Positions 3,354 to 57,778 of a stretch of DNA of 64,000 bases are shown here, in pieces. This stretch comes from Diploptera punctata (taxonomy: Eukaryota > Arthropoda > Insecta > Blattodea > Blaberidae). Within the stretch, counting starts at the first letter, position 1. Each line of letters starts with the position of its first letter. The notes under the pieces were generated by a model. It worked only from the letters and a program-made list of their open reading frames with translations, made no database searches and was not told the DNA's origin. Location of the stretch: positions 762,001 to 826,000 of the forward strand of contig JASPKZ010010239.1 of the NCBI GenBank assembly GCA_030220185.1. Direction: 5' to 3'. The position numbers and the translations under genes were made by a program.

Positions 3354-3910
3354 TGTTTCATTAATACAAACACTTGTGCATAAAATTTGAGTTTCACACT
3401 TCGACTATTGTGACGTTATATATAATGATCTAAACTTTTAGTCACAGAGACTGCTGCGTGTTCATAATACCTGCGTTCGTATCATCACACGCTTTATATT
3501 AGCTTGATTTGTATCTATCTATCTATCTATCTATCTACCTATGATAACGGAATCTTTCAACGCGATTTTCACCCACTTAAAATCATTGGATCGACTTGAA
3601 ACTTTGTATACTTGTAAAGGACCCATGACAATACAATAATTTCATTTTTTCTAAAATCCTGGCCAGAATCGTCAGAATATCAAAAAACGTGTCTTTGTAT
3701 TATGTAACGGAATCTTTGAACACGATTTTCACCCACTTAGAAACATTGGATCGACTTGAAACTTTGTATACTTGTAACGGAGCCGTGACAATACAATAAT
3801 TGCATATTTTGTTTCTAAAATCCTGGCCAAAATCATCAGAAAAAAAAAAAAAAAAAAAAAAAGGAAAACTGGTATAATAGGTTGCGGACTTGCCGACTTT
3901 TTAGTCAATC

Positions 3911-4000
3911 GTTGTAAGAGCTCAGTTGGTAGAGTGGTGAACTCTTGTGGTAAATAATTTCAGTAATCCATAGGTCGCTGGTTCAAATCCGGCTGGGAGG
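3911..4000 (+). other. tRNA-like pol III module in HINE-T
   Basis: It contains an A-box/D-arm match (gagctcagttggtagag) and a B-box/T-arm match (ctggttcaaatccggc), and is followed at once by a run of ten T, a pol III terminator. The first seven and last seven bases do not pair as an acceptor stem, and the segment between the boxes is longer than in a class I tRNA, so it is probably not an aminoacylated tRNA. The same module occurs in the three other HINE-T copies. Confidence 0.7.
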
Positions 4001-4104
4001 ATTTTTTTTTAGAAGAGCATTACTTTTAGCTCATACCACAATAGTATCGAATTTAAAGGTATTTACATTTTTATCTTATTCTGTAAAATATTAAAACTAA
4101 AAAA

Positions 4105-4585
4105 TAAAAAAATTAATAATAGTTTAAAAAAACTAAAACAACACGCTCTATTAGAAAGCCGAACTAAAAAAAAGAAAAATAATTTTAATTTCCAACACGC
4201 TTGGGATAAAATTAAAGTGGTCAACAAAAAAATCATCTCCAACACATATAAAATAAAACTAGAGTTATCAACAAAAATAAAATTTTACCATCAAAAGCGT
4301 GGGGTGCTTTTTATGATTTTTACATTTTGTTCTTAGAGACTTTACTTTTACCAATATATGTTTATTATCAAATATATTGATATAGAGCACCCCACGCTTT
4401 TAATGGTAAAATTTTCTTTTTTTTGTTGATAACTCTAGTTTTATTCTGTATGTGTTGGAGATGATTTTTTGTTGACCACTTTAATTGTATCGCAAGCGTG
4501 TTGGAAATTAAAATTATTTTTCATTTTTTTAGTTCGGTTTTCTAATAAAGCGTGTTGTTTTAGTTTTTTAAAACTATTATTTATT
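4105..4585. repeat. long palindrome of HINE-T copy 1
   Basis: Inverted arms of about 200 bp (4105-4308 and 4386-4585) flank an asymmetric spacer of about 77 bp. Landmarks are 'aaaagcgtggggtgct' versus 'agcaccccacgctttt', and 'gttgataactctag' versus 'ctagagttatcaac'. Confidence 0.85.
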
Positions 4586-5070
4586 TTTAACATCGTTATG
4601 ATCATATTTCCGAACACTTCAATATTCTCTCTTTGCTCCGTCTTAGCGACTGTGCTAAATTGCACTCTCTTTTTCTTCTTTTCAAGCTTCTGTACTTTTT
4701 CACTCATAGCAACCTGGCGTCCAGATTTGAGAAGTTAAATTTTCTCCACAATTTTGACATTAGGTCACAAGATAACAGTATGTTAACAATCGATCTCCCC
4801 AGCATTTCGTCTTATTCCACTTCTTTCAGAGTATCCTCAACTCGATTTCTGGCATTCCTACCCACAAGAACTCATGGATTTCCGCACACTTGACACTTTA
4901 AAATCTCGCTCATACAATTATTATCTGTTAAATAATTAATTTTTCTCCAATATTAAATTTATTCTATGTCATTATTAGTTGTATTTACATGTTTACATCT
5001 TGTACATTTTATAGCTTATTTGTTAAATCTAAAGCAAATCAACTTACATTGTAAATAATAATGCTACTGT

Positions 5071-5424
5071 ATATGTAACATGTCCACCGCTTTGGCCTCG
5101 AGGTAGCGTGCTGCCTTGTCACGCAGCGGGCCCGGGTTCGATCCCCGATCGGGGCAGTTTTTCTGGGTGAGGTTTTTATCGAGGTTTTCCTCACCTGTAA
5201 GACAAATGTCAGGAAAACTTTAAGGCCCAAACGGTCCCCGAAATCATATGGCCCTCATCATCATCGTCATTATCATCCTTCACCGGTGTGGAAAGCAACG
5301 GGAAGCTACTACACCTACAATTCCCTAGTAAATCTGCAAGCATAGCATGAAAATGCTATGATTGCAGCGAAGGACCTGCCTTCGGGCAGAATTACTATGG
5401 ATGGATGGTTGGATATGTAACATG
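5071..5424 (+). mobile_element. SINE-A copy 1, full length with 12-bp TSD
   Basis: A perfect 12-bp duplication, atatgtaacatg, is found at 5071-5082 and 5413-5424. The head is tRNA-like: A-box region 'ctcgaggtagcgtgctgcc', B-box 'gggttcgatccccg'. The body contains 'ctcacctgtaagacaaatgt', a (cat)n tract and 'ccggtgtggaaagcaacggg'. Near the 3' end are two hairpins, catagcatgaaaatgctatg (5341-5360) and ctgccttcgggcag (5376-5389), followed by a (ggat)n tail. This is the best reference copy of the family. Confidence 0.92.
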
Positions 5425-5655
5425 TAATCATTTATGTTCACTGTAATTTAGACATAAGACTAATTATTTCAATTTTTTTCTAATCTGGTTCAGTGTTAGA
5501 CTAGACCGTAAGGTTTTGACTGTGCCAGATAAATAAAGCCATAATTAATACATACACATGACCATAACCTACAGTATAAAGATTTATGATAACATCTTTT
5601 AAGAATCCATCCATCAGTTAAAGCAGCAGAATCACTATTACCTTTAAATGCATAG

Positions 5656-54914: not shown

Positions 54915-55019
54915 ACTTTTTTATAGAAGAGTATTACTTTTAGCTCATACTACAATAGTATCGAATTTAAAGATATTTATATTTTTATCTTATTCTGTAA
55001 AATATTAAAAATAAAAAAT

Positions 55020-55492
55020 AAAGAATAGTTTTAAAAGACTAGAATAACACGCTTTATTAGAAAACCGAACTAAAAAAATGAAAAATAATTTTAATTTCCA
55101 ACATGCTTGGGATAAAATTAAAGTGGTCAACAAAAAAATCATCTCCAACACATATAGAATAAAATTAGAGTTATCAACAAAAAGAAAATAATTTTACCAT
55201 CAAAAGCGTGGGGTGCTTTTTATGATTTTTACATTTTCTTCTTAGAGAGCTTACTTTTACCAATATCTGTTTATTATCAAATATATTAATTGATATAGAG
55301 CACCCCACGCTTTTGATGGTAAACTTATTTTCTTTTTGTTGATAACTCTAATTTTATTCTATATGTGTTGGAGATGATTTTTTTGTTGACCACTTTATTT
55401 TATCCCAAGCGTATTGGAAATTAAAATTATTTTTCATTTTTTAGTTTTCTAATAAAGCGTGTTCTTTTAGATTTTTAAAACTATTATTTATT
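55020..55492. repeat. long palindrome of HINE-T copy 3
   Basis: Arms about 55020-55217 and 55299-55492 with 'aaagcgtggggtgct' and 'agcaccccacgcttt' at the inner edges; spacer about 80 bp. The equivalent palindrome of copy 2 is at 52919-53400. Confidence 0.88.
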
Positions 55493-55998
55493 TTATTTTC
55501 TGATGATTATGGCCAGGATTTTAGAAACTAAATATGAAATTATTGTATTGTCACGAGTCCTCTACAAGTATACAAAGTTTCAAGTCGATCCAATGATTTT
55601 AAGTGGGTGAAAATCGCGTTGAAAAATTCCGTTACATAGATAGATACAGGTCAAGCTAATATAAAGCGTGTAAAAATATAACTTATTCATCCAGTTATAT
55701 GGATTCGAAACATGTACTTGTACTTTAAATAGGTAGAAAATTACGAATATCTTCTTCTTCTTCACTTCATGGTCTAGGCAAATTGCCTGTTCCGCCTCAC
55801 AATTCTTATGTCCATCTTTTCACTGGCCTTCCTACATTCTTTGAACCTCTAGGCTTGTAATTAAATGCTGCTTTTGGTAATCTTGCTACATTCATTATTT
55901 CTACATGTCTACACCATTTATCTCTATATTCCTTGATTTTATCATTCAGTGGATAATAGTTAATTCTGTTTTTACACGCTTCATATTACCTTGACCTG

Positions 55999-56234
55999 TA
56001 TCTCTCTATCTATCTATCTATCTATCTATCTATCTATCTATCTATCTATCTATCTATCTATCTATCTATCTATCTATCTATCTATCTATCTATCTATCTA
56101 TCTATCTATCTATCTATCTATCTATCTATCTATCTATCTATCTATCTATCTATCTATCTATCTATCTATCTATCTATCTATCTATCTATCTATCCTATCT
56201 ATCTATCTATCTATCTATCTATCTATCTATCTAT
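55999..56234 (+). repeat. (TCTA)n microsatellite, about 59 units
   Basis: Perfect tcta units with one slip at about 56193, similar in position to the 3'-proximal slip of the array in copy 3. Confidence 0.97.
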
Positions 56235-56764
56235 GTAACGGAATCTTTCAACGCGATTTTCACCCAGTTAAAATCATTGGATCGAATTGAAACTTTGTAT
56301 ATTTGTAAAGGACCCGTGACAATACAATAATTTCATATTGTTGTTTCCAAAATCCTGGCCAGAATCATCAAAAAATAAAAAATAGTGTCTTTGTATCTAT
56401 GTAACGGAATCATTGAACATGATTTTCACCCACTTAGAAACATTGGATCGACATGAAACTTTGTATACTTGTAAAGGGCCCGTGACAATACAACTATTTC
56501 ATATTTAGTTTATAAAATCCTGGCCAGAATCATCAGAAAACCAAAAAAAGTGTCTTTGTATCTATGTAAAACGGAATCTTTGAACACGATTTTCACCCAC
56601 TTAGAAACATTGGATCGACTTGAAACTTTGTATACTTGTAAAGGACCCATGACAATACAATAATTTCATATTTTGTTTCTGAAATCCTAGCCAGGATCAT
56701 CAGAAAATAAAAAAAATGAAAACTGATATAATAGGTTGCGGACTTGTCGACTTATTTGTCAATC

Positions 56765-56843
56765 GTTGTAAGAGCTCAGATGGTAGAGCGGTGAACTCTA
56801 GTGGTACATAATTTCAGTCGCTGGTTCAAATCCAGCTGGGAGG
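56765..56843 (+). other. tRNA-like module of HINE-T copy 4, 12 bp shorter
   Basis: A-box 'agagctcagatggtagagcg', B-box 'ctggttcaaatccagctg'. The segment before the B-box lacks 'taatccataggt', present in the other copies. T-run tttctttt follows. Confidence 0.65.
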
Positions 56844-57778
56844 ATTTCTTTTAGAAGAGTATTACTTTTAGCTCATACTAGAATAGTATCGAATTTAAAG
56901 ATATTTATATTTTTATCTTATTCTGTAAAATATTAAAAATAAAAAATAAAGAATAGTTTTAAAAGACTAGAATAACACGCTTTATTAGAAAACCGAACAA
57001 AAAATGAAAAATAATTTTAATTTCCAACATGCTTGGGATAAAATTAAAGTGGTCAACAAAAAAATCATCTCCAACACATCTAGAATAAAACTAGAGCTAT
57101 CAACAAAAAGAAAATATGTTTACCATCAAAAGCGTGGGGTGCTTATTTTATGATTTTTACATTTTCTTCTTAGATACTTTATTTTTACCAATAACTGTTT
57201 ATTATCAAATATATTAGTTGATATGGAGCACTCCAAGCTTTTGATGGTAACATTATTTTCTTTCTGTTGATAACTCTAGTTTTATTCTAGATGTGTTGGA
57301 GATGATTTTTTATGACCACTTTCATTTTATCCCAAGCTTATTGGATTTTTTTTTTCATTTTTTAGTTCGGTTTATAATAAAGCGTGTTGTTTTAGTTTTT
57401 TTTAATACTATTATTTATTATATATTCATTCTTTATCCGATCCAATCTTGTGCAGCCTTTTGTTCTTCTACTTTGCAATTTTTTTATTCATTACTCAAGT
57501 TTCACTCCCATGAATTAATGCAGGAACTGCCAATGTTTTATAAAACTTCAATCTATTATATCTTCTTGTTTTGTTCTTTAATTTGTGATGTATAGTTCCG
57601 CATATCATTTGAAATTTCAACACTTTTAAATTCATGTCTATTTCAGTTTTTGTGTCCATAGTAAAATTACAACCCAAATAATTAAAATTTGTTTCTTGTT
57701 CCTGAGGTTTGTTGTCTATTATGATTTTGATCCTACATGATCATTTCCAAAAAAAAAAAAAACTTTTGTTTTGTTTAC

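What the first reader, a model, noticed from the sequence alone, without database searches (positions are those of the whole stretch)
3487..57419. HINE-T: an element family joining a (TCTA)n array, 165-bp satellite units, a tRNA-like gene and a long palindrome
Four copies (3487-4585; 52919-55671; 53807-55492; 55974-57419) share one order of modules: ACACGCTTTATATTAG end, (TCTA)n, 1-4 tandem units, tRNA-like A/B-box module with T-run, 200-bp inverted arms, CTATTATTTATT end. An inverted match to the 5' end lies about 35 bp before the 3' end. Known Helentron-associated elements (HINE, DINE-1) have subterminal inverted repeats, internal tandem repeats and no TSD. The tRNA-like module and the arms of about 200 bp are, as far as I know, not standard parts.
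Basis: partly seen in the sequence, partly recalled or inferred. Interest (0 to 1): 0.85.

Follow-up and report, generated by a model that had tools for sequence, protein, structure and literature searches.

The report
Cockroach rolling-circle transposon carrying tRNA remnant
A cockroach-type insect genome carries a family of non-coding jumping elements that look like known rolling-circle transposons but have picked up what looks like a worn tyrosine-tRNA gene and a giant hairpin at one end, two parts I met in no description of such elements that I saw.

Summary
Four copies share one module order and exact ends: 3487-4585 (+); 52919-53806 plus 55493-55671 (-, split); 53807-55492 (+, nested in the second); 55974-57419 (+). 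The second copy, joined across the nested one, reads T6|T2 and equals one of six other units (T8) letter for letter, so insertion was into a T-run with no longer target duplication (one or two T cannot be excluded). Subterminal inverted repeats, 4-nt microsatellite, 160-167 bp central repeats and T-rich targets are the published anatomy of HINEs (non-autonomous Helentrons). The autonomous partner could not be sought: the genome search did not complete.

Two additions go beyond the known plan. (1) The tRNA-like module resembles an intron-containing tRNA-Tyr gene: in copy 1, 48 of 55 exon but 6 of 18 intron positions match a printed pre-tRNA-Tyr, without gaps. It has no acceptor stem. (2) The last ~475 bp are one imperfect palindrome whose left arm starts with an inverted copy of the 3' terminus.

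Best reading: a HINE subfamily founded by one read-through event that captured a host tRNA gene and an inverted neighbouring 3' end (inferred), then amplified. New variant of a known kind.

The parts
3487..4585 (+). copy 1, complete (1099 bp): 5' subTIR 3487-3502, (TCTA) 3512-3542, 2 central units, tRNA-Tyr-like module 3919-4010, palindrome 4111-4585
52919..53806 (-). copy 2, 3' part (minus strand): palindrome 52919-53390, tRNA-like module 53500-53579, central unit; interrupted by copy 3
55493..55671 (-). copy 2, 5' part: rest of the central units and 5' subTIR 55656-55671
53807..55492 (+). copy 3, complete (1686 bp), nested in copy 2 at a T-run: (TCTA)n 53830-54130, 4 central units 54122-54775, tRNA-like module 54832-54914, palindrome 55018-55492
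55974..57419 (+). copy 4, complete (1446 bp): (TCTA)n 55999-56234, 3 central units 56228-56716, tRNA-like module 56773-56843 (deletion between the boxes), palindrome 56945-57419
3919..4010 (+). tRNA-Tyr-like module of copy 1: A box, intron-like insert, B box/T-arm and T-run; no pairing acceptor stem (by eye)
   Evidence: Rfam tRNA matches of the three other copies lie below the gathering score
55018..55492 (+). terminal palindrome of copy 3; outer ends are the 3' terminus and its inverted copy (one change)

Best explanation
These are four copies of one non-autonomous Helentron-type (HINE) transposon in a blattodean insect genome, spread by rolling-circle copying supplied by an unseen autonomous partner and inserting into T-runs. 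Shown here: exact ends, a nested insertion with a paralogous empty site, subTIRs, microsatellite, central repeats, and no known protein domain in the copies' ORFs of 90 aa or more. Inferred: in the founder, copying began at a normal 5' end, ran past a missing or damaged 3' end through flanking host DNA that held an intron-containing tRNA-Tyr gene, ran through a neighbouring copy's 3' end lying in inverted orientation (not read as a terminator), and stopped at the next correctly oriented 3' end. One such end-bypass accounts for both the tRNA module and the palindrome. The composite has since moved as one unit, the tRNA part mostly as a passenger. The palindrome would fold into a hairpin of almost 200 bp on a single-stranded intermediate and may reinforce the 3' termination signal (a guess).
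For: Nested insertion: copy 2 joined across copy 3 reads CACTTTTTT|TTATTTTCTGATGATTATGG and equals the unit at 54249 letter for letter, so the whole composite, palindrome and tRNA module included, moved as one unit. By eye the 40-bp flanks share nothing beyond T-rich letters, and only offset matches of up to 4 nt were found as possible TSDs. 5' flanks end in at least five T in 3 of 4 copies. SubTIRs lie 29-31 bp from the 3' end. TCTA/TATC arrays and 160-167 bp units match the HINE plan. End bypass is discussed for Helentrons in PMC4067079. tRNA-Tyr: copy 1 aligns over 73 nt without gaps to a printed pre-tRNA-Tyr (24/29 and 24/26 exon, 6/18 intron); spliced copy 1 scores 82 against a best of 64 among 110 control tRNAs from prokaryote and viral contigs. 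An intron-like insert argues for capture as DNA. The copy 2/copy 3 nest shows that inverted neighbours occur in this family.
Against: The partner is unknown: no Rep or helicase domain in 50 of the window's 51 ORFs of 90 aa or more, and the genome could not be searched. The empty site is a paralogous unit of copy 3 itself; the other five units printed differ in or beside the T-run, so a duplication of one or two T is not excluded. Copy 1 lacks the 5' T-run. The short 3' hairpin folds (RNA parameters) in copies 1 and 2 only. The subTIRs are imperfect. The capture order is inferred from end products; no intermediate copy is in hand. Isotype: unspliced copy 3 scores higher against an archaeal tRNA (66) than against tRNA-Tyr (65); relaxed ARAGORN calls the four modules Ile, Leu, Tyr and Tyr; the T-arm letters alone are not Tyr-specific.
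Confidence: 0.75

Rival explanations
1. Composite of two elements: a HINE-like 5' part into which a separate foldback/MITE-type element (the ~475-bp palindrome with AATAAATAATAG/CTATTATTTATT ends) once inserted near the end.
For: The palindrome has matching outer ends and could stand alone as a foldback element.
Against: In 4 of 4 copies nothing of the element follows the palindrome, so it forms the element's own 3' end; its arms carry the partner of the 5' end 29-31 bp from the end; with copy 1 as query, the printed matches of 60 bp or more all lie in the four copies; the nested copy moved as a whole.
Confidence: 0.1
2. The tRNA-like module is a SINE that inserted into a HINE, rather than a tRNA gene captured as DNA.
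For: A and B boxes and a T-run are present and the acceptor stem is missing, as in SINE heads.
Against: The intron-like insert of copy 1 aligns without gaps, at the same length, to a pre-tRNA-Tyr intron; no A-rich tail or TSD was noticed around it on reading the sequence (not tested by computation); the 24-nt T-arm core occurs in the window only in these four elements.
Confidence: 0.2
3. The tRNA module is a working part: TFIIIC/Pol III loading at the A and B boxes helps the element (open chromatin, fork pausing or an RNA), and is kept by selection.
For: Variable ungapped columns among the four copies: 2 of 36 in the boxes against 7 of 26 between them (Fisher p 0.028, which corrects).
Against: The boxes do not differ significantly from the module's flanks (2/36 against 13/131, p 0.53) or from the 3' tail outside the module (2/36 against 80/596, p 0.21); copy 4 has a broken T-run and a deletion between the boxes; only four copies.
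Confidence: 0.12
4. The family belongs to Helitron2 (no endonuclease) rather than to Helentrons proper.
For: Helitron2 has asymmetric terminal inverted repeats and inserts between TTTT and T or C (PMC5148889 passages); the flanks of copies 2 and 3 read TTTT|C and TTTT|T.
Against: Copies 1 and 4 read C|T and T|A at the same borders; Helentrons share the same kind of termini; the microsatellite plus central-repeat plan I read of is described for HINEs.
Confidence: 0.15

Closest known systems
HINE / DINE-1 (non-autonomous Helentrons; Thomas et al. 2014, PMC4067079)
   Same: subTIRs near both ends, microsatellite, tandem repeats in some copies, T-rich target, no target modification, no proteins
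   Different: no tRNA module or ~200-bp terminal inverted arms in the sections I read; mite 3' palindromes there are 5-10 bp
Cg_HINE, Pearl and related bivalve elements (PMC7492417)
   Same: mostly 4-nt microsatellite in the 5' flank, then a short array (mostly up to 5 units) of 140-180 bp, then the 3' end
   Different: the 3' flank there is a 60-bp segment after the last repeat; here it is about 700-725 bp with the tRNA module and palindrome
Helitron2 / FoHeli (PMC5148889, passages seen)
   Same: asymmetric terminal inverted repeats, the 3' one about 20-40 bp from the end
   Different: those are mostly protein-coding fungal elements; no tRNA module or long palindrome in the passages I saw
Helitron-annotated tRNA-Cys cluster of Arabidopsis (PMC10701932, passages seen)
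   Same: tRNA genes overlapping annotated rolling-circle elements
   Different: there three prediction programs gave no reliable Helitron over the tRNA genes, and the authors say real capture would be the first ncRNA example; here the tRNA-like module lies inside an element with defined ends and a nested insertion
Foldback elements (recalled)
   Same: long inverted arms that can fold back
   Different: arms at one end only, no TSD, inverted partner of the far 5' end inside the arm

Membership tests
HINE (non-autonomous Helentron) | subterminal inverted repeats of about 11-15 bp, close to the 5' end and about 38-60 bp from the 3' end | tested here: met
   15-16 nt imperfect pair, at the 5' end and 29-31 bp from the 3' end, closer than the published mite range
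HINE (non-autonomous Helentron) | short palindrome/hairpin between the 3' subTIR and the 3' end | tested here: inconclusive
   stem in copies 1 and 2, none in copy 3, a different weak one in copy 4 (RNA parameters)
HINE (non-autonomous Helentron) | insertion in T-rich/TT target without target-site modification | tested here: met
   one paralogous empty site, exact against 1 of 6 units; duplication of one or two T not excluded; 5' T-run in 3 of 4 copies
HINE (non-autonomous Helentron) | internal microsatellite and 140-180 bp tandem repeats | tested here: met
   TCTA/TATC arrays and 165-167 bp units in copies 3 and 4, spacing 160 in copy 1
HINE (non-autonomous Helentron) | autonomous Helentron (Rep/helicase/endonuclease) with the same ends | not testable with these tools
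   the genome search was unreachable in 11 of 11 attempts; no Rep domain in 50 of 51 window ORFs
Helitron2 | Rep/helicase without endonuclease; insertion between TTTT and T or C | tested here: inconclusive
   the borders of 2 of 4 copies fit; no protein to test
Functional tRNA gene | complete cloverleaf with paired acceptor stem | tested here: not met
   ARAGORN 0 of 4 at default; Rfam match covers model positions 9-63 of 71, 21.9-25.1 bits against gathering 29, in the 3 copies searched at low threshold
tRNA-Tyr gene origin | exon similarity and an intron at the canonical place | tested here: met
   48/55 exon, 6/18 intron, ungapped, copy 1 (exon borders set by me). Unspliced, Tyr is the best match for copies 1, 2 and 4 but not 3
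SINE | tRNA head with body, A-rich or simple tail and TSD as a separate unit | not tested
   dispersed copies could not be sought; only the four in-element copies in the window

The most novel reading that the evidence does not exclude
A Helentron-type rolling-circle transposon has captured a whole intron-containing host tRNA-Tyr gene as DNA, kept its Pol III A and B boxes through several transpositions, and replaced the usual small 3' hairpin region by a ~475-bp palindrome that serves as its terminator: the first non-coding-RNA gene shown to be carried by this class, with a possible role for Pol III factors or the giant hairpin in transposition.
Probability: 0.18. Interest if true: 0.7.

Novelty: new variant of a known kind. 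Interest (0 to 1): 0.5.

Why it matters
Helitrons and Helentrons are known to carry pieces of protein genes. The authors of PMC10701932 wrote (passage seen) that a tRNA captured by a Helitron would be the first non-coding RNA example. A family with exact ends, a nested insertion and a recognisable tRNA-Tyr remnant would give a countable case, show how end-bypass builds composite elements, and offer a natural test of whether a very long 3' hairpin is tolerated or favoured by rolling-circle termination.

Tried and rejected
The genome search on the window's own assembly was tried eleven times with the same request and never answered, so no genome-wide alignment, copy number or autonomous partner could be obtained.

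An exact 22-mer of the palindrome core found 0 matches in viral contigs and 0 in genome contigs. A 17-mer from the tRNA leader hit 5 viral contigs, about what I would expect by chance; not followed up.

The idea that the T-arm letters alone would name the isotype failed. A 21-mer hit 3 viral and a 22-mer 40 prokaryote stretches. ARAGORN calls a tRNA over the match in 33 of these 43 loci: 26 Met, 4 Val, 1 Ile, 1 Phe, 1 undetermined, 0 Tyr. Relaxed ARAGORN on the four modules gives Ile, Leu, Tyr, Tyr. The Tyr assignment rests on the ungapped exon/intron comparison.

Arm-to-arm conversion: 3 of 36 ungapped variable columns differ between copies yet agree between the two arms in all four copies, 2 of them private to one copy; copy 2 lacks a GAACT stretch in both arms (copy 3 in its right arm only). 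But of the 24 ways to pair the arms the true one ranks first on ungapped columns only; on all 59 columns one pairing beats it and one ties. Suggestive only; columns 0-17 were dropped before this count.

Selection on the Pol III boxes: my first count mixed gapped and ungapped columns and gave p 0.002 for boxes against the stretch between them; recounted, p is 0.028, and nothing is significant against flanks or the tail. For that reason the odds of a working Pol III part went from 0.15 to 0.12 and of the novel case from 0.2 to 0.18.

Pfam on 50 of 51 ORFs of 90 aa or more (63683-64000, cut by the window's end, was left out): three hits, RVT_1, Exo_endo_phos and RNase_H (E cut-off 0.001, 0.01 in the others). 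RNA folding of the tRNA modules: z -1.66, -0.53, 0.59, -2.21, no consistent signal.
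Full report
WHAT IS THERE. Four copies of one interspersed element lie in the window: copy 1 3487-4585 (+), copy 2 52919-53806 plus 55493-55671 (-), copy 3 53807-55492 (+) nested in copy 2, copy 4 55974-57419 (+). The host is most likely a blattodean: the longest ORF listed, a reverse transcriptase, is 81% identical over its whole length to a Blattella germanica protein, and most of the named relatives near the top of the 120 shown (of 1200) are from Periplaneta or Blattella, with one from Cryptotermes. 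The species is not established.

ANATOMY. In element orientation: ACACGCTTTATATTAG; (TCTA)n with 6, 2, 72 and 56 words in copies 1-4 (copy 2 by eye); 2, 2, 4 and 3 central units of 160-167 bp; a tRNA-like module ending in a T-run; about 84 columns; then a palindrome of about 475 bp that ends the element at CTATTATTTATT. Its arms are 79-89% identical within a copy, around a loop of 77-83 nt. The left arm starts with an inverted copy of the 3' terminus (AATAAATAATAG in copy 2, one change in each of the others). Copy 3's palindrome folds as DNA at -182.6 kcal/mol, z -35.9.

ENDS AND TARGET. By eye, 40 bp of flank share nothing beyond T-rich letters, and a scan for duplications gave only offset matches of up to 4 nt (one base off for copies 2 and 3). 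Copy 3 gives a paralogous empty site: copy 2's unit, joined across it, reads CACTTTTTT|TTATTTTCTGATGATTATGG, identical over that stretch to the unit at 54249, which has eight T. That unit belongs to copy 3 itself; the five other units printed differ in or beside the T-run, so a duplication of one or two T cannot be excluded. Either way the whole composite moved as one unit into a T-run. 5' flanks end in five or more T in 3 of 4 copies; copy 1 (ATCATC) does not. An inverted partner of the 5' end lies 29-31 bp from the 3' end in all four.

COMPARISON WITH HINEs. Thomas et al. 2014 (PMC4067079; I read the Background, parts 1-2 of 3 of the Results, and the Discussion) describe mite HINEs with 12-15 bp subTIRs, the 3' one 38-60 bp from the end, a 5-10 bp 3' palindrome, T-rich targets, no target modification, and microsatellites or tandem repeats in some copies; T-runs of variable length are described for Culex and Drosophila elements. 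Vojvoda Zeljko et al. 2020 (PMC7492417; one Results section and part 1 of 2 of the Discussion) describe mostly 4-nt microsatellites and short arrays of 140-180 bp units in oyster HINEs. The present family fits, with soft spots: subTIRs closer to the 3' end, a short 3' hairpin that folds only in copies 1 and 2, copy 1's 5' flank, and no autonomous partner seen. The partner is untested rather than absent: in the window, 50 of 51 ORFs were scanned and three hits, all retroelement-type domains, were found; the genome search did not complete. Helitron2, which has the same kind of termini (PMC5148889, passages), cannot be excluded.

THE tRNA MODULE. Rfam's tRNA model matches the three copies searched at low threshold at 21.9-25.1 bits, below the gathering score of 29, over model positions 9-63 of 71, that is without the acceptor stem, and with a long insert in the anticodon loop. 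Copy 1 was searched only at the gathering threshold and is not listed. ARAGORN calls none of four at default; relaxed, it calls Ile, Leu, Tyr and Tyr. A pre-tRNA sequence printed in PMC12025293, a review of tRNA fragments in disease (appendix passage seen, species not shown there), aligns to copy 1 over 73 nt without a gap. That it is tRNA-Tyr I take from its agreement with the mouse tRNA-Tyr-GTA primers printed in PMC12239594 (passages); the exon borders I set from recall. 24/29 and 24/26 exon positions but 6/18 intron positions agree. With introns left out the score is 82, against a best of 64 among 110 control tRNAs (copy 1 only). Against this: unspliced, tRNA-Tyr beats all 112 controls for copies 1, 2 and 4 (70/63, 68/66, 59/57) but not for copy 3 (65/66); the controls come from prokaryote and viral contigs plus two tRNA-like stretches of the window, so no other eukaryotic isotype was compared; and the T-arm alone is not Tyr-specific. 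I take a tRNA-Tyr gene origin as likely (about 0.8) and the module as a pseudogene.

HOW IT MAY HAVE ARISEN. The palindrome has the 3' terminus at both outer ends, which self-priming at the 3' tip would not give (that would put the terminus in the middle). It looks like a 3' end in inverted orientation followed by one in normal orientation. An upstream HINE copying past its own 3' end, through host DNA with a tRNA-Tyr gene, through an inverted neighbour's 3' end, to the next correct 3' end would give the observed order in one event. End bypass and composite transposition are discussed for Helentrons in PMC4067079, and copies 2 and 3 show that inverted neighbours occur in this family. This is inference; no precursor copy was found.

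DOES IT DO ANYTHING. The A and B boxes have 2 variable columns of 36, the stretch between them 7 of 26 ungapped (p 0.028), but the module's flanks (13/131, p 0.53) and the tail outside the module (80/596, p 0.21) do not differ significantly from the boxes (corrects). Passenger status is the default. The long hairpin could form on any single-stranded intermediate; that it helps termination is a guess.

NOVELTY. Searches for Helentron/Helitron with tRNA capture, tRNA-derived modules or long inverted repeats showed no element of this kind among the rows listed, judged by titles and abstract openings only, apart from the papers named above and PMC8268682 (passages). PMC10701932 (passages) states that a tRNA captured by a Helitron would be the first non-coding RNA example. 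Only open-licence PMC papers are held, so this is weak evidence of absence. Verdict: new variant of a known kind.

Noticed in passing
27901-27972 and 28187-28259 (+): Two tRNA-like stretches 286 bp apart on one strand (Rfam 40.5 and 33.2 bits), similar to each other by eye; the second is called tRNA-Ser(cga) by ARAGORN. Possibly a duplicated tRNA gene or tRNA-derived repeats.
   Followed up: no
32708-35786 (-): LINE-type retroelement: reverse transcriptase ORF (RVT_1) with an endonuclease ORF (Exo_endo_phos) upstream; closest named relative in Blattella germanica.
   Followed up: partly
39663-39999 and 60374-60710: Inverted pair of 337 nt at 98% identity, an apparently young unrelated repeat.
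   Followed up: no
18166-18257, 41391-41482, 46887-46978: Three copies (90% and 67% identity to the first) of a 92-nt repeat beginning TTTTCGAGGTTTTTCCTCACCTGTAAGACAAATG; family not identified.
   Followed up: no
palindrome arms of copies 2 and 4 (52919-53390; 56945-57419): Both arms of copy 2 lack a GAACT stretch, and both arms of copy 4 share a private A-to-C variant (ACATC), which hints at arm-to-arm copying.
   Followed up: partly
20688-21371 (+): ORF with an RNase H match just above the curated cut-off (28.9 against 25.8 bits), a retroelement remnant.
   Followed up: no
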